NCBI RefSeq assembly: GCF_007991175.1
Contig: NZ_BJXV01000008.1
Location: forward strand, 124,001 to 188,000
DNA length: 64,000 bases
Reading direction: 5' to 3'
From: Halovibrio variabilis
GTDB lineage: Bacteria > Pseudomonadota > Gammaproteobacteria > Pseudomonadales > Halomonadaceae
The notes under the pieces are model-generated. The model was not told the DNA's origin and searched no databases. It saw only the letters and a program-made list of their open reading frames with translations. This document shows positions 8,801 to 28,018 of this stretch, one piece after another (position 1 is the stretch's first letter; every line of letters begins with the position of its first letter). Both the position numbers and the translations under genes were made by a program.

Positions 8801-11800
8801 CGCCATGTTTGCCGCATCTTTCTGAGCTGCCTGGGCGGCAGCGCACACGCTCACCTTGGAGCAGGTCGGCGTTCTCCTTTTCTGAGCTGCCTGGGCGGCA
8901 GCGCACCGGAAAGCAATTTAATCAATTGGCTATGGATATTTCTGAGCTGCCTGGGCGGCAGCGCACATCTGCTCGCCCTGCGCGATCTTCTGCGGGGTTT
9001 TCTGAGCTGCCTGGGCGGCAGCGCACTGCAGAGGGTGGCTACTTAGCGAATTTTGGTTTTTCTGAGCTGCCTGGGCGGCAGCGCACGGCAATTGGGAATA
9101 TGACGGCAAGCCGGTCAATTTCTGAGCTGCCTGGGCGGCAGCGCACCGAGTATTGTCATTAGCGCCCCTGGCGTTGTATTTCTGAGCTGCCTGGGCGGCA
9201 GCGCACCGCTACTTCATGGGTAAAGTGTTCGGCAACACTTTCTGAGCTGCCTGGGCGGCAGCGCACGTGGCGCGCTAGGCTTTGGCGGTGGCGAGGTTTT
9301 TCTGAGCTGCCTGGGCGGCAGCGCACATTCTTCCACGCCAGCGTTAGCGACTTGTGCTTTTTCTGAGCTGCCTGGGCGGCAGCGCACGAAGTCGTCTATC
9401 CCATCACTTATGCCGTCATTTTCTGAGCTGCCTGGGCGGCAGCGCACGGCTTAGTGTCAAGCTCAACGGTAATGTTGCCTTTCTGAGCTGCCTGGGCGGC
9501 AGCGCACGCCATGTGGCTATTGGGCGAGCGCTCGACGGTTTTCTGAGCTGCCTGGGCGGCAGCGCACCGTTCATCTCGCCAACACTAATATGCAGAGATT
9601 TTCTGAGCTGCCTGGGCGGCAGCGCACCCAGTAAACTCTTTTACCCGGTCGACGCCGTTTTTCTGAGCTGCCTGGGCGGCAGCGCACAAATGCTGGCAGC
9701 GCTGGTAACAGAGCTTGAGTTTCTGAGCTGCCTGGGCGGCAGCGCACTGCCGTTTTGCCGCCCAACTGCTGCGCCTTCTTTTCTGAGCTGCCTGGGCGGC
9801 AGCGCACGCGCCAGGCACCACATAGCCGGTGGCATTGGCTTTCTGAGCTGCCTGGGCGGCAGCGCACGGCTTTTTCCCCTTCGATCTGCACCTGTGGCAT
9901 TTCTGAGCTGCCTGGGCGGCAGCGCACCCAAGCGGTGCGCTGCTATCCGTCGTGACTATTTTCTGAGCTGCCTGGGCGGCAGCGCACACAAAAGCACATT
10001 AGTACGAATGTACATAGGTTTTCTGAGCTGCCTGGGCGGCAGCGCACCGCCCACTCGCCTTTGGTGTGAGGCAGCAACTTTTCTGAGCTGCCTGGGCGGC
10101 AGCGCACATCTCGCGGCTGCTCATTGTCGCTTGCGTAGTTTTCTGAGCTGCCTGGGCGGCAGCGCACTTTAGGCGCGCTTTTTCTTCATCTTCGCCAATT
10201 TTCTGAGCTGCCTGGGCGGCAGCGCACGCCGAGATCGCGCTAAAAGAAGGCCTGACCATTTTCTGAGCTGCCTGGGCGGCAGCGCACTGCGGTTTGGTTG
10301 GCGTCATCAATCTGCTGCTTTTCTGAGCTGCCTGGGCGGCAGCGCACGTAGAGTAGTTCGGAGAGCTGCCTGGGCGGCAGCGCACGCTGTAATTCAGGTC
10401 TTCTTCTAGCTTCGTCAGTTTCTGAGCTGCCTGGGCGGCAGCGCACGATGTCGCTAACTGGGATCAGTTCAGCTGGTCTTTCTGAGCTGCCTGGGCGGCA
10501 GCGCACCCTCTAGGATGGCGTCTGTGCTGCCTGGGGTTTTTCTGAGCTGCCTGGGCGGCAGCGCACGAGCAGACGAGGCGCCCATACCGCATGATCGGTT
10601 TCTGAGCTGCCTGGGCGGCAGCGCACTCAACGTAGCGCATGCCCGCAATACTGGAAATTTTCTGAGCTGCCTGGGCGGCAGCGCACCATAGTCTCAAGCA
10701 CCTCCGCCTGCTTAATCATTTCTGAGCTGCCTGGGCGGCAGCGCACGCTTTGCGTTCCTTCTTCTTGGCTTCTTCTTTTTTCTGAGCTGCCTGGGCGGCA
10801 GCGCACCGATAGCGCGGCGCGGGTAGTGGGCGCGGGTGGTTTCTGAGCTGCCTGGGCGGCAGCGCACGAAAGTTATCTTGATGTATTTGATGCCGAAGTT
10901 TTCTGAGCTGCCTGGGCGGCAGCGCACGCTTTCCCGTTGGCGGCGATGAAGAGTTGCATTTTCTGAGCTGCCTGGGCGGCAGCGCACCTGCATGGCACTG
11001 CCATGGTGTGGCGTGGCCCTTTCTGAGCTGCCTGGGCGGCAGCGCACTGAGAGCGCTAAGAGCAAGCCTGTAAGAACGATTTCTGAGCTGCCTGGGCGGC
11101 AGCGCACTAGCCATAGATAATAATTTAAACATTGTTTGTTTTCTGAGCTGCCTGGGCGGCAGCGCACTGGATGATTTTAACGTTTCATCATTGCTTGAAT
11201 TTCTGAGCTGCCTGGGCGGCAGCGCACATTGCTGTGAAGGGCCAGTAACACACTGGAAGCTTTCTGAGCTGCCTGGGCGGCAGCGCACGTCTAGTGATAT
11301 TCGTCGTATTTTCAGCGACATTTCTGAGCTGCCTGGGCGGCAGCGCACCTTTTCCAAGCGTGTCTTTAGTTCAGTCTTTTTTTCTGAGCTGCCTGGGCGG
11401 CAGCGCACAACTGCTGGGCAATGTCGCAGGGGGCAACGCTTTTCTGAGCTGCCTGGGCGGCAGCGCACCGTCTTTCGCGGCTGCGCCTGGGGGCGGTAAA
11501 TTTCTGAGCTGCCTGGGCGGCAGCGCACAGACCCGGTAGAACGGAAGCTGGCTCGGAACTTTTCTGAGCTGCCTGGGCGGCAGCGCACTCCGGTACAACG
11601 CTTTACTGGTCAGTCAATGTTTTCTGAGCTGCCTGGGCGGCAGCGCACCACTGCATGTGCTTTCGCTCATTCCGCATTGATTTCTGAGCTGCCTGGGCGG
11701 CAGCGCACTGCTGAGCAATGATATTATTGGTCGTGTGGGTTTTCTGAGCTGCCTGGGCGGCAGCGCACATATAACGGTATTCGCGGGCGGCAATCTGGTT

Positions 11801-14800
11801 TTTCTGAGCTGCCTGGGCGGCAGCGCACGGCGGCTATGACCGTAACGATTGCCCTGCACATTTCTGAGCTGCCTGGGCGGCAGCGCACTGCTGCAGTACG
11901 CCCAGCCAGCACATAACGGCTTTCTGAGCTGCCTGGGCGGCAGCGCACTTTGTCGTTTAGCTCTAACGCGCGCTTGAGCTTTTCTGAGCTGCCTGGGCGG
12001 CAGCGCACATCCAGGCGAAAGCCCTAACCAAAGGGCTAGCCTTTCTGAGCTGCCTGGGCGGCAGCGCACAATGCTTAGTGAGCGCTGGGGGATGACCAAG
12101 CTTTCTGAGCTGCCTGGGCGGCAGCGCACAAACTCCAAATGCGTCGCCGCAATAGATGCTTTTTCTGAGCTGCCTGGGCGGCAGCGCACGGCATTGCGCG
12201 CAGGCGATACGCTTGTTGTGTTTTCTGAGCTGCCTGGGCGGCAGCGCACTTGTCGGCATGGCGTCCCAGCTGCTCGATCACTTTCTGAGCTGCCTGGGCG
12301 GCAGCGCACATTCGCCATGGGTCTCACTCCGTTCGCTGTAATTTCTGAGCTGCCTGGGCGGCAGCGCACTCGAGGCAACGGGTAATTTTATTATCCCGGA
12401 TGTTTCTGAGCTGCCTGGGCGGCAGCGCACCGAGAACAGCCGCACTCTGGACATTGTTTGGTTTTCTGAGCTGCCTGGGCGGCAGCGCACATGTCAACTT
12501 GCTGCTGACTCCGGCGGGGATTTTTCTGAGCTGCCTGGGCGGCAGCGCACATATGGCGATTGCCCTTTGCCTGTAATACGCTTTTCTGAGCTGCCTGGGC
12601 GGCAGCGCACGAGAACTCGCGCCCGGTTACGGCTTTTATAGTTTTCTGAGCTGCCTGGGCGGCAGCGCACTCGGCAAGCGCATCAATCGCCACGTTCTTA
12701 AATTTCTGAGCTGCCTGGGCGGCAGCGCACGCACACGTACCGGCCGATAAGCATCAAGCCGTTTTCTGAGCTGCCTGGGCGGCAGCGCACGTCGAGCGTT
12801 GGCCATGAGGGGTACCCGTTCTTTTCTGAGCTGCCTGGGCGGCAGCGCACTGTGCCGGTGATGCGGACGCGGGGTTCCCATTTTTCTGAGCTGCCTGGGC
12901 GGCAGCGCACTACCCGAGTGATAACACGCTCCGTTTCTCTCGTTTCTGAGCTGCCTGGGCGGCAGCGCACGAAAAACCATTGATTTAGTGTTGTTTTGGA
13001 AATTTCTGAGCTGCCTGGGCGGCAGCGCACTATACCCGCGATGAAATGAGCGAAGCTTGCAATTTCTGAGCTGCCTGGGCGGCAGCGCACCAGATACCAG
13101 TTGTAAAAGCCAGTTTGATATATTTCTGAGCTGCCTGGGCGGCAGCGCACACTTACCGGCCTGTAAGACCTGTCTCAGCAAATTTCTGAGCTGCCTGGGC
13201 GGCAGCGCACAACAGTAGCGGCGATGCTGGGTCAATTCGTTGTTTCTGAGCTGCCTGGGCGGCAGCGCACCCACCTTCCAGAATCATCGGCTTGTGGTTG
13301 TTTTTCTGAGCTGCCTGGGCGGCAGCGCACGATCGTGAGCGCGAAGCGGGCGACGTTGTTTATTTCTGAGCTGCCTGGGCGGCAGCGCACGTTGCAGTGG
13401 GGGCAGCTCATTGCCTGCAGGTTTTCTGAGCTGCCTGGGCGGCAGCGCACGTCACTTGCTTACATGAACTCTATAGCGCGCTTTTCTGAGCTGCCTGGGC
13501 GGCAGCGCACTGGGCGCCGTGTATCCGGCGGGCAGGCGATGCTTTCTGAGCTGCCTGGGCGGCAGCGCACCATGAAGCTGACCGGCTCTTGACCATCTTC
13601 CATTTCTGAGCTGCCTGGGCGGCAGCGCACGACGTGGCGAACGTCGCCATCCAGATTGATTCTTTCTGAGCTGCCTGGGCGGCAGCGCACTCCGACCCCT
13701 CAGCGCTGGGCATGATTAACAATTTCTGAGCTGCCTGGGCGGCAGCGCACTAAGCACCTATCGGGGCTTTCTTTTTTCTATTTTTCTGAGCTGCCTGGGC
13801 GGCAGCGCACCAAGAGCACTTGATAGGGCGCGTTCTGCGAGGTTTCTGAGCTGCCTGGACGGCAGCGCACAGTGGGTGGCCGCGCATTACGGCGTGGCGC
13901 TGTTTCTGAGCTGCCTGGGCGGCAGCGCACTCTGTCAACCTGCGTACGGTCCGCCTCCTGCTTTTCTGAGCTGCCTGGGCGGCAGCGCACAATGCCACCC
14001 GCGAAGAGCGCGACGCCATATCTTTCTGAGCTGCCTGGGCGGCAGCGCACGCCAGCCGTTGAGCCTATCCCTGATTTCCAGTTTTCTGAGCTGCCTGGGC
14101 GGCAGCGCACGTGCACACGTATGAATGCGCGGGCTTTGACATTTTCTGAGCTGCCTGGGCGGCAGCGCACTCCTCCTTGATACCCATCACTAGGTTGCTA
14201 TTTTTCTGAGCTGCCTGGGCGGCAGCGCACGAGAGCCAGATGCTGACTTGCTGGTTTTTCAGTTTCTGAGCTGCCTGGGCGGCAGCGCACGTGATAACAG
14301 GTGTGCCGTGGTATTCGATATATTTCTGAGCTGCCTGGGCGGCAGCGCACTCAAGGCGAAGGGCGACGATGGCGTATGGAAATTTCTGAGCTGCCTGGGC
14401 GGCAGCGCACAGGCTCGCAAACGTATACGCACGATTTCGACTTTTCTGAGCTGCCTGGGCGGCAGCGCACCCCGGTTGCAACGGTAGCCCCGCGATTGAC
14501 ACTTTCTGAGCTGCCTGGGCGGCAGCGCACGCTTAAAAGCAAAAGCTGCTGCCGTGGGTAAGTTTCTGAGCTGCCTGGGCGGCAGCGCACAATGGCCCGC
14601 TGCACCACATGCTGGGCACCCTTTTCTGAGCTGCCTGGGCGGCAGCGCACCTGGCCGAGCTACGCCGGTTGCAGTGGGAGCTTTTCTGAGCTGCCTGGGC
14701 GGCAGCGCACGTGATTGGTTTATTGATGTGCTGCTGCCCTCATTTCTGAGCTGCCTGGGCGGCAGCGCACGCCGCCTTTGTGCCAGCATTAGCCGACGAC

Positions 14801-16030
14801 ATTTTCTGAGCTGCCTGGGCGGCAGCGCACGCTGGTAAACACCCTGCTTAATCAGTAAGTATTTTCTGAGCTGCCTGGGCGGCAGCGCACATTGCCGACA
14901 CTGAGCGCGAAGCTATCCGCCTTTTCTGAGCTGCCTGGGCGGCAGCGCACTCGGCCATGTCGAGCATTCGCCCGCTGGATTGTTTCTGAGCTGCCTGGGC
15001 GGCAGCGCACTGATCTTGAATTTGACGCGGGTCAGTCACAATTTTCTGAGCTGCCTGGGCGGCAGCGCACCAGACGCTCTGCAAGTTGGAATTGCTTGCG
15101 TTTTTCTGAGCTGCCTGGGCGGCAGCGCACGCCCTCTAGCGACTGCACGAACGTACCGAACTTTTCTGAGCTGCCTGGGCGGCAGCGCACCAAGGGGCAT
15201 CGCAAAAGCCTTGATCGCTGGCTTTCTGAGCTGCCTGGGCGGCAGCGCACGGCGCAGTATTCGCCAACGTTGACGTTCTCGGTTTCTGAGCTGCCTGGGC
15301 GGCAGCGCACACGCCGTCTTGGACGTGCTAGCGCCGGGGTATTTTCTGAGCTGCCTGGGCGGCAGCGCACCGCCGCTCTGGCCGTTTGAGCGTCAGTCAG
15401 CATTTCTGAGCTGCCTGGGCGGCAGCGCACTCAGCTTTTAATTCCTCTGCGTGGATTGATGCTTTCTGAGCTGCCTGGGCGGCAGCGCACGTGACGCTTG
15501 CTGGTTAGTTTCGCTATCTCGCTTTCTGAGCTGCCTGGGCGGCAGCGCACGGGCTGGTAATTAACGGCGGTATCCATATCGATTTCTGAGCTGCCTGGGC
15601 GGCAGCGCACCTAGACAGCTGGCAGATAAAAGCGTTTTTAATTTTCTGAGCTGCCTGGGCGGCAGCGCACGGCAAGGATCGTAAGCGGGTAGACGCGTTC
15701 ACTTTCTGAGCTGCCTGGGCGGCAGCGCACGCGCTGACGGACCCCAAAGAAGTAAAGCGTCGTTTCTGAGCTGCCTGGGCGGCAGCGCACAGTGGTCGCC
15801 GGGCCAGCAGGGCGTATCTGTTTTTCTGAGCTGCCTGGGCGGCAGCGCACGCAACATCAATGCTCGATGCGTGCATTCGGTTTTTCTGAGCTGCCTGGGC
15901 GGCAGCGCACAGAACGCCTATCGCTTCCAGGTGGTCGCCAATTTTCTGAGCTGCCTGGGCGGCAGCGCACGGTGCCACAGTACCCCAAGGGTCACGCAGG
16001 AATTTCTGAGCTGCCTGGGCGGCAGCGCAC
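5872..16030 (-). CRISPR. Type I-F CRISPR array, 170 repeats and 169 spacers
   Basis: 28-bp repeats recur every 60 bp. In crRNA orientation (minus strand) the repeat begins GTGCGCTGCC, has the stem CTGCC / GGCAG with loop GCCCA, and ends with the handle CTCAGAAA, which is typical of I-F. By hand count there are 170 repeats. Of the 169 spacers, 161 are 32 nt, six are 33 nt, one is 39 nt (6440-6478) and one is only 14 nt (10348-10361). Four repeats deviate: the terminal one at 5872-5899 (5 changes in its last 9 positions), 6659-6686 (2 changes), 10362-10385 (shortened) and 13843-13870 (1 change). The degenerate end and the cas genes place the leader at the 16030 end, so the newest spacers are near cas6f. 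Confidence 0.99.
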
Positions 16031-16159: not shown

Positions 16160-16729
16160 TCAAAACCACGGCACGGTAGCGTTACTGCTTAATCCATAGT
16201 GGTTAAACGCTCCCGCCACCGAGCTTTCTTGAGGTTTGCTGTGTTCTATAAACAGACAAAAGCGCTGCTGGGTAGAACGGCTATTGATCTGCACAAAGGG
16301 CAGCGCAATACGGCGTTCAGCCAACTTGGCGTAAATTTTCCGCGCCTCTTCTTCTGAAACATTGTGCCGTTTGGCGTAGCGCTTGGCACGGCTTGGGCTG
16401 CCCGTATTGAACTGCTTCCGCGCGACGTTGAAGTGCTGTGCATTAGCGGGCACAACAAGCAACTCACTGACTTGAGTGTGGTCACGCATGCCAGTTAGCC
16501 AGTCAGACGCCATCAACTGCTCCAGCCGTGTCTGGGCACCATGCAAACGCAGGTGGTCACCTAACTTGCGAGCGCGAACACCTTGTTTATGGGCTGGAAA
16601 GCTAACGCCTAGCTCCGTTGCCTGTAGGTCGAACAGTGCCCGATGCAGCTTGTTGTAGAGCGCCTCCATCAGCATCGCCGGCTTAAAGTCAGGATCAGGT
16701 CTTAGTCGAATATCAATATAGTGATCCAT
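16160..16729 (-). CDS. cas6f: CRISPR-associated endoribonuclease Cas6f (Csy4)
   Basis: The 189 aa are close to the ~187 aa of characterised Csy4. The N-terminus MDHYIDIRLRPDPDF and C-terminus YGLSSNATVPWF are family hallmarks. The likely catalytic residues are His29 (NKLHRAL) and a Ser in INSRSTQQRF (Ser150, with Ser152 nearby). The arginine-rich helix SPSRAKRYAKRH (111-122) should bind the major groove of the repeat hairpin. Cas6f cuts the pre-crRNA 3' of the stem and stays bound to the crRNA in the Csy complex. It follows csy3 after 3 bp, is the last gene of the minus-strand cas operon, and precedes a terminator and the array leader. Confidence 0.97.
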   Translation of the reverse strand: MDHYIDIRLRPDPDFKPAMLMEALYNKLHRALFDLQATELGVSFPAHKQGVRARKLGDHLRLHGAQTRLEQLMASDWLTGMRDHTQVSELLVVPANAQHFNVARKQFNTGSPSRAKRYAKRHNVSEEEARKIYAKLAERRIALPFVQINSRSTQQRFCLFIEHSKPQESSVAGAFNHYGLSSNATVPWF

Positions 16730-16732
16730 AGC

Positions 16733-17788
16733 TTACCCCGCATCGCCGAATACACCGCCCCGAATCAGGGTTGCCATTACGAAATGCTGCTGCTCGACGG
16801 GCGGCACTTGGTCTTTTAATAGCCAGCTATCCAGCAGGTTGTAGAAATCTAACTTCTCTTTTCCTTTACCCGGATTGGGCTGACGGTAAGCAGTGCCCTG
16901 GGTGGTTACGGAGCCGTAAGGTTCGACGGCGATGGGGCCAAGATGACTACTGCCTTCCGGTACCGGATACCAGGTATCGATGGTGCGCAGGGCATTACCA
17001 AGTTTCTGCGAGTGGATAGCCGCTTTTTTGTCGTTACCTTCACCGATGCTGTAAAGCGTCTTGCTCTTGTCACCACGTGAGCGATCCAAAATTAGTTCCT
17101 GCGACGGAAACACTTCCTGACCGGCGCCAATACGGGCGAACGCTACGACGTCCAGTAATAAGTATTGCTTGCCTGCCAGCGCCTGGGTGATGACCGCGCC
17201 CAGCTCTTGGGTCTGTTTATTACCGGTAAAATCACGGGTGGACTGCTCGAGCGCATCGAAGGTCCAGGTCTTTTCTGGCTGGCCTCCTTTCATTTGGCTA
17301 ACGACCACTTCGACGTCCTCGGCGCCCATGCGGTTGCGCCACAGGAAACGGCCATTGGCTAGGTTGCAGGCATAACGATGGGCCAGCTCGTCGAAGCCGT
17401 GCTCGCTGACATAGCCCGAAACCGTTTGCGCCAGCTTCTTCTGGTAGTCGGCGTTGTTGCAGGCGGAAGGAGTACCGGCACCGGCCAGAACACGAAGCGT
17501 GAAGCGAACCGCCAGGGTATCGGCATCGTGAGGCAGGGTTGCGACGTCTACCGTTTGCAGATTAGGGTTCTCGATAGCTGCATCAAGCTTGAGCGGGTCC
17601 TGGTCTTTCGCCTTCAGACGATTGGAAATCGTACCGCGCACCGATTTTTCGCGTACCGGGATGAAGCTCCACTGCGCTGCCTGCGAGCGGTCTTCCCAGC
17701 TACCAGCACGGAATAGCGCATCGGATGGGTCGAGTTTGCGCTCGAAAGCGAGTACAGAGGCGGTTTTGAGCGTGTCGTTCTTGGCCAT
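16733..17788 (-). CDS. csy3: Csy complex backbone protein Csy3 (Cas7f)
   Basis: The 351 aa match the Cas7f family (about 340 aa). Family-like segments include the N-terminal [20 protein letters not shown] and the central [12 protein letters not shown]. Six copies form the helical backbone along the crRNA spacer in characterised I-F complexes, and the protein's thumbs create the six-nucleotide periodic kinks in the guide. It is 18 bp after csy2 and 3 bp before cas6f, consistent with one transcript. No truncation or frameshift is seen. Confidence 0.96.
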
Positions 17789-17806: not shown

Positions 17807-18790
17807 TTAGTCTTGTGTCAGCGTATTGGCGTAGTCGTTTTGCAAACGATAAATCTCGCGATCCAGGTCGTTCTCCACGAACCACATCAGGTCGTCGGGC
17901 TTTTGAAAGCGATGCGGGCTGACCCACTCGCCGATGGAGTAGAGGCTTTCCACAAACTGAAACGGCACTTCGCCATCGCGAGCATTGGCGACCTCTCCAG
18001 CTGTGTACAACGCCGAGATAGCACCGTAGCCAACTGGAATCGGCACCAGCCAGCCGGGATAGGGTCGGCGAACGTCCCACCGCACGACCTCTTTTTCCTT
18101 GCCATCTTTTTCGTCCTTTACTTGCTCGACGCGGCACTCATGATTCAACCGGGAAAGGTCGAGCCAGGCATCCAAAGCGGTGGCGCTTTCGTCCTGCGCT
18201 TTTAGCGTGGCGGTATGTTTGGTCAGCAGGTCATCGCGCAGCACCAGTGCAAAGCCGGGCAGAAGGCGACGTTTGAGACGTTGCCACTGTTTTTTCCTGT
18301 CTGATTCAGTGGCACTAAAGCTAATCAACTCGGGGCGATAGCGCTGTCGAACATCAAGCGAAGGCATGACGCTGCCACCCGCAATACGCATAGCCTGAAC
18401 CTGCTCGTATAACGCTTGAGCAATGGCGCGGCGGCGCTCGGCGCTGCTGAGGTCGTCACCTTTTGACTCAACACCAATCAATAGGCTGACTTCCAGATGC
18501 GCACGCCCTTCTTCAACAATGGCGGCTGTAGAACCACTCTTGTCGACAGGATTACGCGTTAGGTGAAACGCCTTGATGAAACCACCTTCGGTCACTTGTG
18601 GCTCGATGTGGTGGCACACCACGCCAATCTCGTTAAAGACCAGCTTGATGTCGTCAGGCAGGTTGCGCTCCAGCACTTGTTGAACGCCTACAAAAGCGCT
18701 CATGGCGGGAAAGCCCCAGGTCATCGGGCTGGAAATGGCGTTGGCGTTCTGAATGCGCAGATGAGGGAGTAAAAGGAGATAATCAATCAT
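17807..18790 (-). CDS. csy2: Csy complex protein Csy2 (Cas5f)
   Basis: The 327 aa are equal or close to the Cas5f family length. The start MIDYLLLLPHLRIQNANAISSPMTWGFPAMSAF is the characteristic Csy2 N-terminus, with a RAMP-like first strand. With Csy1 it caps the 5' handle of the crRNA and takes part in PAM recognition. Its ATG overlaps the csy1 stop by 4 bp (18787-18790), indicating translational coupling and likely 1:1 synthesis. Confidence 0.95.
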   Translation of the reverse strand: MIDYLLLLPHLRIQNANAISSPMTWGFPAMSAFVGVQQVLERNLPDDIKLVFNEIGVVCHHIEPQVTEGGFIKAFHLTRNPVDKSGSTAAIVEEGRAHLEVSLLIGVESKGDDLSSAERRRAIAQALYEQVQAMRIAGGSVMPSLDVRQRYRPELISFSATESDRKKQWQRLKRRLLPGFALVLRDDLLTKHTATLKAQDESATALDAWLDLSRLNHECRVEQVKDEKDGKEKEVVRWDVRRPYPGWLVPIPVGYGAISALYTAGEVANARDGEVPFQFVESLYSIGEWVSPHRFQKPDDLMWFVENDLDREIYRLQNDYANTLTQD

Positions 18791-20175
18791 GGGGACTCTC
18801 CTGGGAGGCTTTCCTCGTCGTCGCGCAAAGCATCTTCTATATCTTCCAACTGGCGTCGGAATTTTTCCAAAACCAGCTCAACCTTGTTCGCCCAAAATTC
18901 ATGCTCCGGGTCACCCAAGATGATCTTCATACGTTTAGTCAGCGTATTTTTCAGCCAACCCGCGACTCGCTGAGAGATCTCTTCATGCCAATCAGACTGA
19001 CGTCGTGCGCTTGCAAAATCGGGGTCCAGCTCGCTTCGCCCGGGGTCGAGCCAATAGCATTCAGCCGTTACCAGACGGCACTCGCTCTCTTTTGACCAAC
19101 CCGGCGTTAAACGGTGAAGCTCATGGGTAAACATCAAAAGCTCATCGGATAGCATTGCCGTCAGGTCGTCGTGCACATCCCTGTCCTGATACGTTTTCCT
19201 TGGCGCTTTTCCAGCCAAGGCGCGCCGCTCATCCTCTTGCATATTCTGTTTTATCCAACTGACCAAATCGTTGATCAGTTGGCGGACCGGCGCTCGTCGG
19301 CCAAAGCGTGGCAGAACCGACTCCGTGCGAAGCGGCGGGGTTACGTCACGGGAAACCCAGTTCGGCGGGAGCGAGGCAAGCAGATAGTTCTGCCCGCCAC
19401 GCTCGCTGTTAAGCTGAGAAATATTCTGCGGCTTGGTGCCGCCCAGCTTCTGTACGGCCAGGTTGAGGTAATCGCTGTAGCCACCTTCGAAAGCAGCGCT
19501 ATCGCGGCGGGCCTTGCGCCCAGTTTTGGCGTGTTCGCCAAAACGTGCTTCGCTAAGCCGGGCATGAAACGGATGCGTCAAGGCGGTGGCATAAAGCGGC
19601 GCTAATAGATGATAGCTGGCGTCATCAGCAGGCTCGTCGCCCACCAGCCAGTACACCTGTTTACCCCGCGCATGCGAGCTGGGCATCCCCTTTGGCTCTA
19701 CGATATTGGCAAAGGCGTGCGCCCATTCCTGCGCTTCTTTACGGTCCTTGCTGAGCACATTGATCAGCTCACTATCCTGGTCAAGCGCCCGCTCAAGCAG
19801 TGAGCGCCCCTGCCATTGGAGCTTCAAAAACTTGTAAACATCGAGCGCGGCTGCGTTGCCGACCACGTCGCCCTGGAAGTCGTCAGGCAGGCAGTGGCTA
19901 CCTACGAGATCGCCATGGTCAATCGAGGAGGGTTCGACATAAAGATTGGTGCCCTTGGCATCCGGGTGGACCGCCTTGAGCGAGTGTGTGACGACCTGAA
20001 GCTGACTGACACGCCGCGCGGCATCAGCAAGCCATGTTGGCGGCGCGAACTGTTCTTGCAGCTTGAGATGGGCGGGATCGTCCGCCGCCATCTTATCTGT
20101 CTTGGTCGCAAAGCGGTTCTGAATGAAGGAATCAATCAGCTCCCGCAGTGAACCAGGGGGTTGGGGTTCTGACAT
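18787..20175 (-). CDS. csy1: Csy complex large subunit Csy1 (Cas8f)
   Basis: The 462 aa are slightly longer than the ~434-aa reference Csy1. Recognisable features are the start LRELIDSFIQNRFATK, the PTWLADAARRVSQLQVVTHSLK block near residues 50-72 and the C-terminal helical bundle (about 330-462). Cas8f reads the CC PAM in double-stranded DNA and recruits Cas2-3. It is the first gene of the csy operon. The 446 bp before it hold a crRNA-like RNA gene on the other strand and a protospacer for that RNA, so csy transcription may be regulated there. The Shine-Dalgarno sequence is modest (AGAGAG). Confidence 0.95.
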   Translation of the reverse strand: MSEPQPPGSLRELIDSFIQNRFATKTDKMAADDPAHLKLQEQFAPPTWLADAARRVSQLQVVTHSLKAVHPDAKGTNLYVEPSSIDHGDLVGSHCLPDDFQGDVVGNAAALDVYKFLKLQWQGRSLLERALDQDSELINVLSKDRKEAQEWAHAFANIVEPKGMPSSHARGKQVYWLVGDEPADDASYHLLAPLYATALTHPFHARLSEARFGEHAKTGRKARRDSAAFEGGYSDYLNLAVQKLGGTKPQNISQLNSERGGQNYLLASLPPNWVSRDVTPPLRTESVLPRFGRRAPVRQLINDLVSWIKQNMQEDERRALAGKAPRKTYQDRDVHDDLTAMLSDELLMFTHELHRLTPGWSKESECRLVTAECYWLDPGRSELDPDFASARRQSDWHEEISQRVAGWLKNTLTKRMKIILGDPEHEFWANKVELVLEKFRRQLEDIEDALRDDEESLPGESP

Positions 20176-20443
20176 AAGCTCTCTGCCCTAGTTGGGGTAC
20201 ATGCCAATGGCATGGCATAATGAACCCCGAAGCATTGCTGCCTCGGGGCTTGGATATGGACAGGCCTAAACCCGTCACAGGATTATTATCTTGCGGTGGT
20301 GCCTAGCCACGATGCATATCCTCCTGCCCTCACTGTCCCAGAGAGATTGGGGCCAACCCATCAAGTCAGCATTAATTCGCTTCAAAGTGGGGCACTGCCA
20401 TGCCCCACGCTTTCATCCTACATCTCTTGATATTAAATAATCA
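20176..20443 (-). other. csy1 upstream region: long leader or small toxin transcript (creT-like candidate)
   Basis: This stretch lies between the mini-CRISPR target and csy1 with no normal gene. On the minus strand there is a TTTAAT -10-like box (20432-20437), then a 14-codon frame at 20372-20416 (MKAWGMAVPHFEAN) preceded by AAGAG at good spacing, and a perfect 8-bp hairpin GTGGGGCA / TGCCCCAC (20387-20408) inside it. A 28-codon frame at 20275-20361 holds rare AGG AGG ATA codons but has no ribosome-binding site. A second hairpin CCCCGA / TCGGGG sits at about 20224-20246. CreTA modules place a small toxin RNA exactly here, but none of these candidates is convincing, and a plain 5' leader is equally possible. 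Confidence 0.3.
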
Positions 20444-20444
20444 A

Positions 20445-20477
20445 CCATTACGGCGTATTGATTTGCGATTAAAGAGA
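20445..20477 (+). promoter_or_regulatory. Putative target site of the mini-CRISPR RNA, with CC PAM, upstream of csy1
   Basis: CC at 20445-20446 is a correct I-F PAM. The adjacent 20447-20467 matches the first 21 nt of the pseudo-spacer (20541-20561) at 19 positions; the two mismatches are at guide positions 6 and 18. Beyond position 21 only 3 of 10 bases agree. Partial pairing of this kind allows binding but normally not Cas2-3 cleavage. The site abuts the TTTAAT -10-like box on the minus strand, so a bound Csy complex would block transcription towards csy1. Confidence 0.65.
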
Positions 20478-20505
20478 TAAATAAGATACTCAAATCGATT
20501 ATAGG

Positions 20506-20511
20506 TACAAT
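20506..20511 (+). promoter_or_regulatory. -10-like box for the mini-CRISPR RNA
   Basis: TACAAT matches TATAAT at 5 of 6 positions. A start about 7 nt downstream (near 20518) would begin the RNA at the base of the first pseudo-repeat stem (20519). No good -35 hexamer is seen 16-18 bp upstream. Confidence 0.45.
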
Positions 20512-20513
20512 CG

Positions 20514-20627
20514 AACTCCTGTCGCAAGACAGCTAAGAAAATTACTGCGTATTGATTCGCGGTATAGGTACTTACGTTGCCGCACAGGCAGCTACAGCCA
20601 GCTTTTATAAAGCTGGCTGTTTTATTT
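20514..20627 (+). ncRNA. crRNA-like regulatory RNA (CreR/CreA-type mini-CRISPR)
   Basis: Two degenerate I-F repeats flank a 31-nt pseudo-spacer (20541-20571). Repeat 1 (20514-20540) folds as CTGTC-GCAA-GACAG and ends with the I-F 5' handle CTAAGAAA. Repeat 2 (20572-20599) folds as GTTGCC-GCACA-GGCAGC. Both differ from the array repeats in sequence yet keep the Cas6f hairpin, so they look selected rather than decayed. The RNA reads on the plus strand, against all the cas genes, and ends in an intrinsic terminator that abuts the cas2-3 stop. Its guide matches a CC-flanked site before csy1. Such RNAs are known to direct Cascade to repress cas promoters (CreR) or a toxin promoter (CreA). The structure is seen directly; the role is inferred. 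Confidence 0.75.
20594..20627 (+). terminator. Intrinsic terminator of the mini-CRISPR RNA
   Basis: A perfect 12-bp stem (20594-20605 with 20609-20620) and a 3-nt loop are followed by a T-rich tail (TTTATTT). The T-run is only on the plus-strand side, so it terminates the crRNA-like transcript and not cas2-3, whose stop codon is at 20622-20624. Confidence 0.85.
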
Positions 20628-23600
20628 CTTCCTCACAAACCCCAGTGCAGGATGGAAGTGCCATCCGTAAGGGGCGTAGTCGGTTTTCAATCGGATGCGG
20701 CCAAAACGCTTGGCACAGCGCTCAAGAGTTATGTCCATAGCGTCCGCCTGCTCAACGAGTGCGGCCATGTAATCGGGTTCATTCCAAGGTGTGACGCGCG
20801 GGTTTTCCAGTAGCTCATCCGGTAGCCGGTCTAACTCTCTTTCCACGAGCGTCAGTGTCTCCTCAAGGCCGTTTTGCTCTACGCGGCAAAACAGATAGTC
20901 CTCTTCCGCTTCGTTCGGCATCAAAACGAACTCGCTTTCCTGAGCGTTATCATCACGAAACGGCGCGTGCTGTAGGACGATGGCGCTTAGTGTCATCGCG
21001 GCAGGTCGATAGAAAAGGTAAGCACCGAGCTCGACTTTTGACGTCTCGCCTCGTCGTTTACGGCGGCTTTGCGCGCTTGGCTGCTGCGCACCCTCGACCA
21101 TCAGTGAGGTCAGCCGTGCGTGCTCCAGGTCGACCAGCTTACCCGTGGGGTCGAGTGTTTCTGCAAGCGTCAGACGTGGGCGTGAATCGATGGGGTCGAT
21201 TTCGTTTTCACGCAGTAAGGCGGTGAGCCTGTGTGCACTCAGTGGCCAAAACTGCTCGGTCTCGAAACCTGGGTGGCTAAAGGCGGGCCGTCGTCCTTCA
21301 AGATGTTTCACGTTGGTGTCGAGCAGCGCGATATTGGGTGCATTGATAGCATCTGGACGATGGCGTCGAACGCGCCCGGCAAGCTGAATGATCGAGCGCA
21401 TGGAGGAAGGCTCGGCTATTGCCCAATCCGCATCAAAATCCCTGCCAGTTTCAATCACCGGGGAAGCCAAAACGATAAATAGATGATCCTCGGCGTTGCC
21501 GCGAAGACGACGACGAATATCGGTCAGATCAAAAACGGCGTCCGGATCACGACGATCCAGTACTTGATCCAGTTGGTGCTCCAACCGCGAGCGCAACAGT
21601 AATGGAAACTGTGAGTGATAGACGCACAGATGAATCTGCATCCCTTCGGGGATTTCCGATCGATAAAGCGCCTGTGCCACGGCGACAAGCGGCGCAATAT
21701 TGGCCATGCGCACCAGCCCGAAACTGACCCGCTTATCGCTTTGCGGGTCTTTCGTGTGATGCGCCTCGTGCAGCGCGGTGGCCTGATCAATCACTGTTTT
21801 TGCTAAGACGCCGGCAATGTCGTCGAGCGGTGAAGGCGCTGAGAAGGGAACGAGGTAGCCACGCCGCAGTGCTGGCTGCGATGCAAGCTTGGCAGCGCGT
21901 TTGCGGGCAAAGGCATCGTGCGCGGCATCGAAGTGAGCACCGTCAGCACAGTTTTCCTGCGTGCAGCCATGCTCATCGAACCAGGCGCATACCGGCTCAA
22001 CCAGCGCCCCCGGCTCGCCACGATGGCGCTGGTATTCAGCGCGGCCTTCCCTGTAGGCGTCAAACAGGCCGCGTACTAGCGCGGGCGGCAGCGTGGCGGA
22101 GGAAAGCAGCACCTTTGAGCCCAACATGCCTGCCCAATACACTAGACGTGTGAGCGCGGGCAGATCATCGATATCGAAATCATCTGGCTCATCCAGTACC
22201 AAGTCGCTACTCATCAACCTCAGCATCGGGGCGATTTGATGGCCGCCGCGTAGGCTTTCGGTGGCGGGTATCAGATGATCGATGGTGGAGACAAGGATGG
22301 GGGCACAGATCAAGGAGCGGGCGCGAGGGTCGGCAACGGCCTTGTTTAATACAGGATGCGAATTAACGTTGCCTTCGAAATGCACATGGCTTTGTTCGTC
22401 TAACAAATCAGCCCGGGAATCTGAGCCACCTTGCGACTGCTGATGTTCGAACAATGCGCGGCTGGCCGAGCCGCCCACGCGTACCGCGAGATCATCGCTA
22501 CCCAATCCCAGGCGTTCACGATAGGCCTGCCCGGTCTGTAGCGTCAGGGTACGCAGCCCCAGTGCAATTGAGAAACGCGCCCCAAGGTCAGGCTCGCTTA
22601 AGCCGTAGATGATTCGCCCGTTGGCAATCGTCTTGCCGCACCCAGTCGAGGCCATGTTGATACCAAAAAAGCCTTGGCTGCGGCTTTTCTCGCGCAAGCC
22701 TACGGCTAAATCATAGGCTTTATCCTGCCAGCGAAAACGAGGGTTTTTACTACGGGCCTTGAAACCTTTATGCCCAGCAATGCCACTCATCGCCTTGACC
22801 ATATCAGGCAGGCGGTGGGTAATTTCGCCCACTGCACGCGTAACGCCGAGTAGATGCTCCGTCAACGGCTGACTCATCTGGCGCTTGCCGTTAACCGTGG
22901 CGGTATTGGCATAAAGCACCTTTTCCCAAGGGCCGGATATCCGCCCTGCCCCAGTCAGGCTGGAATAGTGATGGTCGGCCAGCATTAATGCCATGCGTGC
23001 CAGGTGCATTACGTAAGGAGATTCAAGAGGCGGCACGTCGCTGTGGAACTCTCCTAACTGACGAGCCAAGCGCTGCGCTCGCTCTCGCCACGTTATTTCT
23101 GTTACTGGCAAGCCGTGGGGAAAGCGCCAGTAAGGAGCAATCTCTTTCTCTAAAGCGGGCTCCACCCGCTCGTTCCATGCGGCGGTGATGTCTCTTGGTA
23201 GAGTGGGCAAGTTGCCCGTATTGACCGGCGCTTTAGCGCCTGACCACTTTTGGGTGATGTCGTCATCTTCGTAAGCGGGCAACGCCGGTAGGCGGTGATG
23301 GCTGACGATCAACCAACCAATCGCCGCCGCTAAAGGGGGTAAATGGTCGAAGGGGGGCACTTGCCCTGAACCATCTAGTCCGTCACAACGCAACCGTTTG
23401 AGCCAGCTGGCATCGTCGCTTTGCGTGGGGTTTTCAAGACGTGCAAGCCACGCGGCATCGTTATCCTCGCCAACGAAGGCTTCTAACAAGCGCAGCGATA
23501 GCCATTCATGGCGATAGCGATTACGGCCTTCAAGCTTTCCCTGCAAGCGAAGCTGAAAAGCTTGGCTGGCCTTACCCAAGTCATGAAAAAGCGCGGCCAT

Positions 23601-23951
23601 GGAGGCCAGCAGGTGAATTAGCCGCCCACTGTGCCAATCGTTCTCGTCTTCTGCACGCAGGATATTACGCCGTGTGGTATTGGTCGGTGTGGCGCCGCGC
23701 CTATTAAACCGTGAGGCATCCCCCACCACCCATATCAGCTCGCTATGGTCATGACCACGAATCCAGTGGCAGGCGACGGCGGTATTCTTGCGGGCTTTTT
23801 TTCGCAGTAGTTTACGCAGCGTATCCAACCCGGCTTGGGTGATCGGTGTTTGCCAGGTGCGATCACCGCGACGTTCGGCAAACTGGTCTAGGATGCGCCG
23901 GGTCTCCTTGAGTGCGTTCTTGTTGCACTGGGAAATAAGCAGCACGTTCAT
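20622..23951 (-). CDS. cas3f: Cas2-Cas3 fusion: CRISPR helicase-nuclease and integrase subunit
   Basis: The 1109 aa are typical of the I-F Cas2-3 fusion. The Cas2 part is about residues 1-95 (MNVLLISQCN...). An HD nuclease follows with its metal-binding His-Asp at 123-124 (FHDLGKAS). The SF2 helicase has Walker A STGCGKT at 435-441 and a Walker B-type LVLDEPDD further on, and a C-terminal domain completes the protein. With Cas1 it captures spacers; recruited by the Csy complex, it unwinds and degrades target DNA. Its start overlaps cas1 by 4 bp. Its 3' end faces the oppositely transcribed mini-CRISPR RNA, so the csy genes behind it probably use their own promoter. Confidence 0.97.
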   Translation of the reverse strand: MNVLLISQCNKNALKETRRILDQFAERRGDRTWQTPITQAGLDTLRKLLRKKARKNTAVACHWIRGHDHSELIWVVGDASRFNRRGATPTNTTRRNILRAEDENDWHSGRLIHLLASMAALFHDLGKASQAFQLRLQGKLEGRNRYRHEWLSLRLLEAFVGEDNDAAWLARLENPTQSDDASWLKRLRCDGLDGSGQVPPFDHLPPLAAAIGWLIVSHHRLPALPAYEDDDITQKWSGAKAPVNTGNLPTLPRDITAAWNERVEPALEKEIAPYWRFPHGLPVTEITWRERAQRLARQLGEFHSDVPPLESPYVMHLARMALMLADHHYSSLTGAGRISGPWEKVLYANTATVNGKRQMSQPLTEHLLGVTRAVGEITHRLPDMVKAMSGIAGHKGFKARSKNPRFRWQDKAYDLAVGLREKSRSQGFFGINMASTGCGKTIANGRIIYGLSEPDLGARFSIALGLRTLTLQTGQAYRERLGLGSDDLAVRVGGSASRALFEHQQSQGGSDSRADLLDEQSHVHFEGNVNSHPVLNKAVADPRARSLICAPILVSTIDHLIPATESLRGGHQIAPMLRLMSSDLVLDEPDDFDIDDLPALTRLVYWAGMLGSKVLLSSATLPPALVRGLFDAYREGRAEYQRHRGEPGALVEPVCAWFDEHGCTQENCADGAHFDAAHDAFARKRAAKLASQPALRRGYLVPFSAPSPLDDIAGVLAKTVIDQATALHEAHHTKDPQSDKRVSFGLVRMANIAPLVAVAQALYRSEIPEGMQIHLCVYHSQFPLLLRSRLEHQLDQVLDRRDPDAVFDLTDIRRRLRGNAEDHLFIVLASPVIETGRDFDADWAIAEPSSMRSIIQLAGRVRRHRPDAINAPNIALLDTNVKHLEGRRPAFSHPGFETEQFWPLSAHRLTALLRENEIDPIDSRPRLTLAETLDPTGKLVDLEHARLTSLMVEGAQQPSAQSRRKRRGETSKVELGAYLFYRPAAMTLSAIVLQHAPFRDDNAQESEFVLMPNEAEEDYLFCRVEQNGLEETLTLVERELDRLPDELLENPRVTPWNEPDYMAALVEQADAMDITLERCAKRFGRIRLKTDYAPYGWHFHPALGFVRKK

Positions 23952-26938: not shown

Positions 26939-28018
26939 ATGTCTTTTGCCTGTTTATCATATCGGTCGTCGCGTTGGTTAGTGGGCGTTTCCGCGATGCT
27001 GGCGCTGCCTGCTGCCATGGCTAATGAGCGCGTTCAGGTGGTTACCAGTTTCTCCATTCTCGCGGACATGGTGGAAAACGTAGGCGGCGAGCATGTCGAG
27101 GTGACCTCACTGGTCGCTGCCGATGGCGATGCCCACGTTTACTCCCCGAGCCCCGGCGATGCCCGCTCCCTGGCGAACGCTGATTTAGTGGTGTTTAACG
27201 GTCTGCTTTTCGAGGGCTGGATGGAGCGTTTAATTAGCGCCAGCGACTATTCAGGCGCGCTGGTCACCGCGACCGATGGCATTGAAGCTCTCTCTTTCGC
27301 TGAGCATGAAGACCATAACGAGCACGGCCATGAGGATCATGACGAACACGCCCACGAAGAGCACGGCCACGACGATCACGAAGCACATGAAGAACACGCT
27401 GGTCACGAGCATGGCAATCAAGACCCGCATGCCTGGCAGGATATGCACCAAGCCGAGGTGTACGTTGCCAATATTCGCGATGGGTTAATCGCCGCCGATG
27501 CCGATAACGCCGATGCTTACCGCGCCAATGCTGAGCAGTATTTACACGAGATGGCCGAGGTAGACGCCGAGATTCGTACGCTGATTAATGAGATTCCTGC
27601 CTCCACCAGCGTGATTACCGGCCACGACTCCTTTGGCTACTTCTCAAGCGCTTACGGTGTGCATTTCCTCTCGCCCGTAGGGCTTTCCACGGAAGCTGAC
27701 CCCAGTGGCGCCAGCATGGCGGCGCTAGTGGATGTGATTGAGCAGGAGAACGTGAAGGCGCTGTTCCACGAGAACATGACCAATCAGTCGATCATTACTC
27801 AGCTCGCCGAAGAGACCGGCCTGCCGATCGCGGGTACGCTCTACGCCGATGCGCTGGCAGCAGAAGGCGAAGCGAGTACCTACCTGGGTATGATGCGCCA
27901 CAATGCGCATGTGCTGAACGATGCGCTGGCAGAACCTGGTCATGACGAGCACGGACATGACGATCATGAGCAGGTTCACGAAGACCATGACCACAGTGAG
28001 CATAGCCACAGCCACTAA
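26939..28018 (+). CDS. znuA: Zinc ABC transporter substrate-binding protein ZnuA
   Basis: The 359-aa product starts at ATG 26939, preceded by AAGGAG at 6 nt; an upstream ATG at 26915 has no such site. A signal peptide ends near AMA-NE (about residue 28). The cluster A-I fold is marked by VTSFSILADMVENVGG and by the metal-site histidines in DGDAHVYSPSPGD, DPHAWQDM and ITGHDSFGYF. Two His/Asp/Glu-rich stretches are present: the usual central loop (about residues 121-161) and an additional C-terminal tail ending HSHSH. It captures periplasmic zinc for ZnuBC. Confidence 0.94.
   Translation: MSFACLSYRSSRWLVGVSAMLALPAAMANERVQVVTSFSILADMVENVGGEHVEVTSLVAADGDAHVYSPSPGDARSLANADLVVFNGLLFEGWMERLISASDYSGALVTATDGIEALSFAEHEDHNEHGHEDHDEHAHEEHGHDDHEAHEEHAGHEHGNQDPHAWQDMHQAEVYVANIRDGLIAADADNADAYRANAEQYLHEMAEVDAEIRTLINEIPASTSVITGHDSFGYFSSAYGVHFLSPVGLSTEADPSGASMAALVDVIEQENVKALFHENMTNQSIITQLAEETGLPIAGTLYADALAAEGEASTYLGMMRHNAHVLNDALAEPGHDEHGHDDHEQVHEDHDHSEHSHSH

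What the first reader, a model, noticed from the sequence alone, without database searches (positions are those of the whole stretch)
20445..20627. A crRNA-like mini-CRISPR aimed at the csy1 upstream region with a correct I-F PAM
In the cas2-3/csy1 gap, two degenerate I-F repeats flank a 31-nt pseudo-spacer on the strand opposite to cas. Guide positions 1-21 match 20447-20467 at 19 of 21 bases. The only mismatches are at positions 6 and 18, where every sixth guide base is flipped out in Csy/Cascade structures. CC, the I-F PAM, directly precedes the match (20445-20446). Pairing stops after position 21, which favours binding without Cas2-3 cleavage. The RNA has a TACAAT -10-like box and its own intrinsic terminator. 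CreR (cas autorepression) and CreA (toxin repression) RNAs are established classes built this way. This would be a Halomonas I-F member; I cannot tell whether it has been reported.
Basis: partly seen in the sequence, partly recalled or inferred. Interest (0 to 1): 0.96.

Follow-up and report, generated by a model that had tools for sequence, protein, structure and literature searches.

The report
CRISPR-guarded RNA toxin with swappable codons
Between two genes of a Halomonas-type CRISPR system lie a tiny guide-RNA gene and, beside the DNA that its guide matches, a conserved toxin-like mini-gene with two rare codons in a row, so the CRISPR machinery is predicted to keep this poison switched off and cells that lose it would likely stop growing.

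Summary
In the cas2-3/csy1 gap a two-repeat mini-CRISPR carries a guide matching a CC-flanked site at 19 of 21 bases; the next best CC site in the 64 kb has 13. Such pairs, sparing positions 6, 12 and 18, occur in 32 of 49 family loci with gaps of at least 120 bp and in none of their shuffles. The reading changes. Between target and csy1 lie a Shine-Dalgarno box, an 11-codon mini-ORF with tandem AUA codons and a stem-loop. In relatives the same mini-ORF carries a tandem rare pair, AUA, AGA, AGG or UUA, at codons 8-9 in 25 of 27 scanned hits. These are hallmarks of tRNA-sequestering CreT toxins (PMC8501985), in the operon slot of the Acinetobacter I-F CreTA (PMC10097628). Best explanation: a CreTA addiction module in which CreA-Csy would repress a CreT RNA predicted to sequester tRNA-Ile(CAU). 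Pure csy autorepression (CreR) is less likely here but fits relatives without the mini-ORF. Toxicity and repression are untested. New variant of a known kind.

The parts
20506..20511 (+). creA -10-like box TACAAT (putative); no good -35 by eye
   Evidence: sequence; weakly conserved in 41 loci
20513..20540 (+). psiR1: degenerate I-F repeat, stem CTGTC/GACAG, 5' handle CTAAGAAA
20541..20571 (+). psiS: 31-nt guide of CreA; positions 1-21 match the target at 19
20572..20599 (+). psiR2: degenerate I-F repeat, 18 of 28 identical to the array repeat
20533..20591 (+). predicted mature CreA RNA (59 nt) after Csy4 cleavage
   Evidence: inferred from repeat anatomy; full-length csy4 present
20594..20620 (+). 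intrinsic-terminator-like hairpin after creA
   Evidence: folds
20445..20467 (+). CC PAM (20445-20446) and target 20447-20467
20439..20444 (-). predicted creT -35 TTGATT, abutting the PAM
   Evidence: promoter score at least 8/12 at this place in 18 of 28 creT loci, 2.5% at other offsets; 8/12 here
20415..20420 (-). predicted creT -10 TAGGAT (18-bp spacer)
20498..20527 (-). alternative sense promoter TTGCGA-18-TATAAT upstream of the target (10/12)
20387..20408 (-). 5' hairpin at the predicted start of CreT RNA
20320..20325 (-). Shine-Dalgarno AGGAGG of creT
20275..20310 (-). creT mini-ORF, GTG start, 11 codons + TGA (MARHHRKIIIL)
20284..20289 (-). tandem rare codons AUA-AUA (codons 8-9)
   Evidence: AUA 2.9 per thousand codons
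20223..20250 (-). stem-loop after the mini-ORF (weak terminator-like)
   Evidence: 1 of 40 shuffles as good
18787..20175 (-). csy1
   Evidence: TIGR02564
17807..18790 (-). csy2
16733..17788 (-). csy3
16160..16729 (-). csy4 (Cas6f), predicted processor of CreA
20622..23951 (-). cas2-3
   Evidence: TIGR02562
23948..24922 (-). cas1
   Evidence: TIGR03637
5932..16030 (-). CRISPR array, 166 exact repeats found, 162 scored spacers

Best explanation
The cas2-3/csy1 gap holds a CRISPR-like guide RNA gene (creA) that matches, at 19 of 21 bases beside a CC PAM, a site next to the predicted promoter of a conserved 11-codon mini-ORF with two AUA codons in a row, and the pair likely works as a CreTA addiction module in which Csy-bound CreA would repress a CreT RNA predicted to sequester the rare tRNA-Ile(CAU). 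Shown by sequence: mini-CRISPR, target, PAM, SD, mini-ORF, tandem rare codons, stem-loop, full-length csy1-4, and the same set of elements in many relatives. Inferred: Csy4 matures CreA (about 59 nt); Csy-CreA binds without cutting because pairing stops at about 21; binding blocks the -35 (or elongation from the upstream sense promoter); when Csy is lost or inhibited, CreT is made, ribosomes stall on AUA-AUA, the single-copy tRNA-Ile(CAU) is tied up and growth stops. Relatives appear to aim the same scaffold at tRNAs for AGA, AGG or UUA.
For: Guide-target match far above chance. The same scan finds a pair in 32 of 49 family gaps of at least 120 bp, 0 of 49 on the other strand, and 0 of 49 in each of 5 shuffle rounds. 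Positions 6, 12 and 18, not used to pick the pairs, match in 4, 8 and 12 of 32; own pairs agree at 13.9 of 15 core bases (13 was the threshold), swapped pairs at 5.0. The creT scan hits 27 of 42 family and order loci with gaps >=350 bp on the cas strand, 0 on the other, mean 0.13 and at most 1 in 100 shuffle rounds; the tandem pair is at codons 8-9 in 25 of 27, 6-7 in 2. A 3' stem-loop follows in 29 of 29 listed loci, with 2 or fewer of 40 shuffles as good in 27 of 29. AGA and AUA are the two rarest sense codons in the window; one tRNA-Ile(CAU) gene among 48 tRNA matches. The class-A creT pattern has 6 hits in GTDB-220 species genomes, all about 150 nt upstream of csy1. Experimental precedents: AUA-AUA and AGA-AGA CreT (PMC8501985); I-F CreTA in the same gap of Acinetobacter (PMC10097628).
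Against: No RNA or toxicity data. The promoter in the window is weak (8 of 12), and a stronger sense promoter (10 of 12) lies upstream of the target, so the start of CreT is uncertain. 10 of 28 creT loci score under 8 of 12 at that place. The start codon is GUG; an ATG at 20317-20315 opens a 4-codon ORF instead (ACG in L004). The tail after the stem-loop before csy1 is poor in T (3 in 10), so CreT RNA may run into csy1. L003, a near relative, pairs only 14 of 20; L060 has a creT but no scored CreA pair. 17 of 49 family gaps of at least 120 bp gave no pair, 15 of 42 gaps of at least 350 bp no creT hit (L020 and L028 of these were added by eye). The stem-loop of L012 is no better than shuffles (13 of 40). 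9 of 79 csy1-positive family genomes were not fetched, and L040 could not be measured.
Confidence: 0.84

Rival explanations
1. CreR: the RNA guides Csy to repress the csy operon itself, and the mini-ORF is incidental.
For: The target lies upstream of csy1; relatives with a pair but no mini-ORF have the target 7-76 nt from csy1 (L031, L035, L045, L048, L051, L070, L160). In Haloarcula the gap that holds creTA carries a strong promoter for the downstream cas genes (PMC9458426 passages).
Against: Here 269 nt with SD, mini-ORF and stem-loop lie between PAM and csy1; the mini-ORF is conserved with paired rare codons, which CreR does not need.
Confidence: 0.1
2. Leader-peptide attenuator: ribosomes stalling on the tandem rare codons would switch the stem-loop and so control csy1 read-through, with no toxin.
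For: SD, short ORF, tandem codons and a stem-loop precede csy1 in 29 of 29 listed loci (SD and codons were part of the selection of 27 of them).
Against: The pair changes between Ile, Arg and Leu codons in loci of one operon type; in L029 the cassette starts 547 nt from csy1 and ends in a 16-pair stem-loop; it does not need a guide RNA at its promoter.
Confidence: 0.04
3. CreT is the toxin but acts through another route, such as its peptide or a hairpin around the start codon as in Acinetobacter WCHA45.
For: The WCHA45 CreT in the same gap works through a start-codon hairpin, not through rare codons (PMC10097628).
Against: Paired rare codons at a fixed place with changing amino acids point to codons, not peptide; the WCHA45 start-codon hairpin was not looked for here.
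Confidence: 0.12

Closest known systems
Acinetobacter sp. WCHA45 I-F CreTA (Wang 2023, PMC10097628; abstract, sections 6, 8-11, 15, 29 and passages read)
   Same: Same I-F cas3-csy1 gap of about 400 bp, creA divergent from the mini-ORF, two psi-repeats, CC PAM, pairing over about 20 bases with mismatches at 6 and 18 (there also 11)
   Different: Its CreT is a bactericidal hairpin RNA not acting by rare codons; the predicted -35 here abuts the PAM, while its mapped TSS lies upstream of the target
Halobacterium hubeiense and Haloarcula hispanica CreTA (Cheng 2021, PMC8501985; abstract, passages, sections 15 and 18 read)
   Same: CreT mini-ORF with two consecutive AUA or AGA codons and a stem-loop; strong start signals (SD in H. 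hispanica); CreA for which positions 6 and 12 do not matter (H. hubeiense). A homolog with AGA in place of AUA was reported there too
   Different: Archaeal, type I-B; here bacterial, I-F, with one scaffold carrying AUA, AGA, AGG or UUA pairs, mostly at codons 8-9
CreR cas-regulating RNAs (Liu 2023, Cell Host Microbe; paper not seen, known from passages of PMC12737573 and PMC13131331 and recall)
   Same: Mini-CRISPR guiding the effector to a nearby promoter
   Different: CreR targets a cas promoter and has no toxin; here a toxin-like gene lies between

Membership tests
CreTA (type VIII toxin-antitoxin) | creA: degenerate repeat(s) plus a guide partly matching a nearby PAM-flanked site | tested here: met
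CreTA (type VIII toxin-antitoxin) | Target in or next to the creT promoter | tested here: inconclusive
   predicted -35 abuts the PAM, 8 of 12 here; the promoter is not proven and a second candidate exists
CreTA (type VIII toxin-antitoxin) | creT: strong start signals, mini-ORF with tandem rare codons, stem-loop (tRNA-sequestering kind) | tested here: met
CreTA (type VIII toxin-antitoxin) | CreT RNA is toxic when the effector is lost | not testable with these tools
   needs expression assay
CreTA (type VIII toxin-antitoxin) | CreA plus effector represses creT | not testable with these tools
   needs reporter assay
CreR | Guide targets a cas promoter | tested here: inconclusive
   target 269 nt from csy1 with creT between; read-through into csy1 possible
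CreR | No toxin gene linked | tested here: not met
   creT-like mini-ORF lies between target and csy1; its toxicity is predicted
I-F CreTA of WCHA45 type | CreT with start codon inside a short stem, no rare-codon need | not tested
   start-codon hairpin was not searched for; the rare-codon pair is present

The most novel reading that the evidence does not exclude
I-F CRISPR-Cas loci of Halomonas relatives carry a re-aimable addiction cartridge: one conserved mini-ORF scaffold in which two adjacent codons switch together (AUA, AGA, AGG, UUA) so that the guard RNA can hold hostage whichever tRNA is scarce, including a leucine-tRNA type not found in the papers searched, while the same guide RNA also tunes the csy operon, and whole cartridges are swapped, lost or replaced by protein toxins in the cas3-csy1 slot.
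Probability: 0.4. Interest if true: 0.82.

Novelty: new variant of a known kind. Interest (0 to 1): 0.74.

Why it matters
If true, bacterial I-F CRISPR-Cas loci house a family of tRNA-sequestering RNA toxins of the sort shown so far, in the papers I could read, in haloarchaeal I-B systems. Comparative sequence alone suggests that the codon pair, not the peptide, is under selection. It gives a simple signature (gap length, guide-target pair, tandem rare codons at 8-9) for finding more, would explain why such CRISPR loci are hard to lose or inhibit, and makes retargeting of tRNAs by an RNA toxin directly testable.

Tried and rejected
Rfam on the gap: one sub-threshold match (DUF3800-I RNA, E 0.64, 21.9 bits against a gathering score of 44.2), rejected. 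A 14-codon ORF starting near 20416 (-) was considered as creT and dropped: it overlaps the predicted -10 and the 5' hairpin and has no counterpart in L003 and L010 (by eye; not scanned). The class-B creT pattern was sought in viral contigs: 0 hits. The 223-224-bp gap class (10 loci) gives no creA or creT hit. A fixed creA -10 was tested over 41 loci: weak (best mean 2.5 of 6). L026, L027, L120, L126, L153 and L156 have a scored pair but no creT hit and were not resolved. Class-level search: 34 of 369 genomes with csy1; 28 new loci were handled (where no cas3 was found in the locus, 700 nt upstream of csy1 were used): creA pairs in 9 of 28, tandem AGA mini-ORFs in 2 (L169, L174). A later print of eight of these was in the wrong orientation for most and nothing was drawn from it.

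Papers: the survey by Shmakov 2023 is not held under its DOI; the CreR paper (Liu 2023) and the CrePA paper (Shu 2025) were not opened. Searches for a prior report: (capped listings).

Full report
Observation. The cas genes are all on the minus strand and full length by NCBIfam: cas1, cas2-3, csy1, csy2, csy3, csy4. The nearest Csy1 with a name is from Halomonas citrativorans (88%); the host itself is not named. The array lies at 5932-16030 with 166 exact repeats. In the 446-bp gap between cas2-3 and csy1, on the plus strand, lie psiR1 (20513-20540), a 31-nt psiS (20541-20571), psiR2 (20572-20599) and a terminator-like hairpin (20594-20620). The guide matches 20447-20467 at 19 of 21, mismatches at 6 and 18, next to CC. 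In both strands of the window the next best CC-flanked sites have 13 of 21; in 1000 shuffles of the gap the best is 15, once. In the whole own genome the CC-plus-guide pattern has one exact hit, the one here, and one hit with one mismatch.

Conservation. Csy1 was found in 79 of 275 genomes of the same family. 70 loci were fetched, 69 could be measured (L040 gave no cas3 on the same strand). Gap length is split: 20 loci have under 100 bp, 49 have 120 bp or more. In 32 of these 49 a guide after an I-F handle matches a CC-flanked site in the same gap, always on the strand opposite to cas; the same scan gives 0 of 49 on the cas strand and 0 in each of 5 shuffle rounds. Pairs were picked on 15 core positions (1-17 without 6 and 12, at least 13 alike), so agreement there is partly by choice: 32 of 32 at positions 1-5 and 7, 24 to 31 at the others. 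Not used in the choice: position 6 agrees in 4 of 32, 12 in 8, 18 in 12, 19-21 in 18, 15 and 18, 22-32 in 8 to 14. The guides differ (29 distinct 17-mers, median 10 of 15 core differences), yet each fits its own target (13.9 of 15) and not those of others (5.0, at most 14). This is what guide-target coevolution would look like. PMC8501985 reports that positions 6 and 12 of an archaeal CreA do not pair and can be changed freely, and PMC10097628 that the Acinetobacter CreA pairs at 17 of 20, not at 6, 11 and 18.

What is repressed. The target's PAM side is 269 nt from csy1 in the window. The stretch between holds AGGAGG (20325-20320), a GTG-started ORF of 11 codons (20310-20275) with AUA-AUA at codons 8-9, and a 12-pair stem-loop (20250-20223). 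The folded stretch 20408-20215 is more stable than 199 of 200 shuffles (z -3.0). A scan for SD, start, short ORF and two identical rare codons hits 27 of 42 family and order loci with gaps of 350 bp or more on the cas strand, none on the other strand, and 0.13 per round in 100 shuffle rounds. Two more (L020 with a long frame, L028 with AGG-AGA) were added by eye. Of these 29: AUA-AUA 12, AGA-AGA 12, AGG-AGG 2, UUA-UUA 2, AGG-AGA 1. The pair is at codons 8-9 in 25 of the 27 scanned hits and at 6-7 in L066 and L068. A stem-loop follows in all 29, with at most 2 of 40 shuffles as good in 27 of 29; L012 (13 of 40) and L068 (3 of 40) miss that mark. The scaffold (start, Val/Ile/Ala, Gly/Ser/Arg, Tyr/His) is shared by most, while the pair changes between Ile, Arg and Leu codons. 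Selection on the peptide would hardly do this; selection on the codons would. In the window AGA (2.8 per thousand) and AUA (2.9) are the rarest sense codons of 30 ORFs, and among 48 tRNA matches one tRNA-Ile(CAU) was recognised (told from the two Met kinds by its sequence, from recall). The class-A pattern occurs 6 times in the GTDB-220 species genomes, each time about 150 nt upstream of a csy1 already held here (the window's own genome and near ones may be left out of that scan).

Promoter. A -35 like box starts 0-2 nt after the PAM complement. At that place the best promoter reaches 8 of 12 or more in 18 of 28 creT loci, against 2.5% at other offsets. In the window it is TTGATT-18-TAGGAT, 8 of 12. 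A second sense promoter (10 of 12) lies upstream of the target, as the mapped start does in Acinetobacter. Either way a Csy complex on the target would hinder CreT. Which one is used is not known.

Mechanism. H. hispanica CreT needs a strong SD, AUG or GUG, two AGA codons and a stem-loop; H. hubeiense CreT uses AUA-AUA against tRNA-Ile(CAU); a GUG start works when an SD is present. All these parts are here. I therefore take it as CreTA: CreA-Csy represses CreT, and loss or inhibition of Csy frees CreT, which would tie up tRNA-Ile(CAU). No step of function has been tested.

CreR-like relatives. L031, L035, L048 (target 7-11 nt from csy1), L045, L051 (75-76 nt), L070 (70 nt) and L160 (66 nt) have the pair but no mini-ORF by the scan. 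In the window both effects may coexist, since the stem-loop before csy1 looks like a weak terminator.

Evolution. On a csy1 tree of 85 rows the states need 32 changes (weak loci of the order search were left out by hand, 15 names, and L063 as too short). L001 (AUA) and L002 (no module, 33-bp gap) are neighbours (support 95/70, not starred), and L019 (AUA) and L020 (AGA) are well supported sisters (100/98), so cartridges seem to come, go and be swapped. In L026 the mini-ORF is not found and ParDE genes (Pfam) sit between creA and target.

Novelty. Papers seen: PMC10097628 (abstract, sections 6, 8-11, 15, 29, passages), PMC8501985 (abstract, sections 15, 18, passages), PMC9458426, PMC12737573, PMC13131331, PMC10651486 (passages). 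The main texts of PMC10097628, PMC8501985, PMC9458426 and PMC10651486 do not contain the word Halomonas. In the listed rows no CreTA paper names Halomonas (the joint hits are Cretaceous and the like), and none holds 'UUA codons' with CreT. The supplement with 19 more I-F modules was not readable, so priority is open. PMC8501985 already reports an AUA-to-AGA exchange between archaeal relatives. I call this a new variant of a known kind.

Noticed in passing
5932-16030 (-): Very long I-F array: 166 exact repeats, 162 scored spacers (156 of 32 nt).
   Followed up: partly
L026, L027 (cas3-csy1 gap, 1133 bp each): ParE and ParD genes (Pfam, L026) antisense to cas between creA and its target; creT mini-ORF not found by the scan in either locus: a protein toxin-antitoxin pair may have taken the slot.
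   Followed up: partly
L044, L045, L059 (same genus; L051 has a gap of similar length): A HicB-family gene (Pfam, L045 copy; the others alike by eye) and an 83-aa ORF without Pfam hit before it (HicA-like by eye), antisense to cas in the gap, next to repeat-like sequences.
   Followed up: partly
L126, L127 (other family, order search): In place of creT an ORF of about 69 aa (L126 copy: no Pfam hit), with a creA-like pair in L126 and a weaker one in L127; possible protein toxin.
   Followed up: partly
L107, L109: Similar-looking small ORFs (72-78 aa; the L109 copy has no Pfam hit) in the same gap next to repeat-like stems, no scored guide-target pair.
   Followed up: no
L039, L041, L043, L047, L049, L052, L053, L055, L056, L057: 223-224-bp gap class of the same genus without creA or creT hit; L039 and L041 look like a HicB-gene remnant by eye.
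   Followed up: no
L066, L068 (gaps 507 and 501 bp): The guide matches two tandem target sites, 18 and 24 bp apart.
   Followed up: no
27313-27996 (+): Repeated His/Asp/Glu-rich coding stretches in a gene not far from the cas locus, looking like a metal-binding loop.
   Followed up: no
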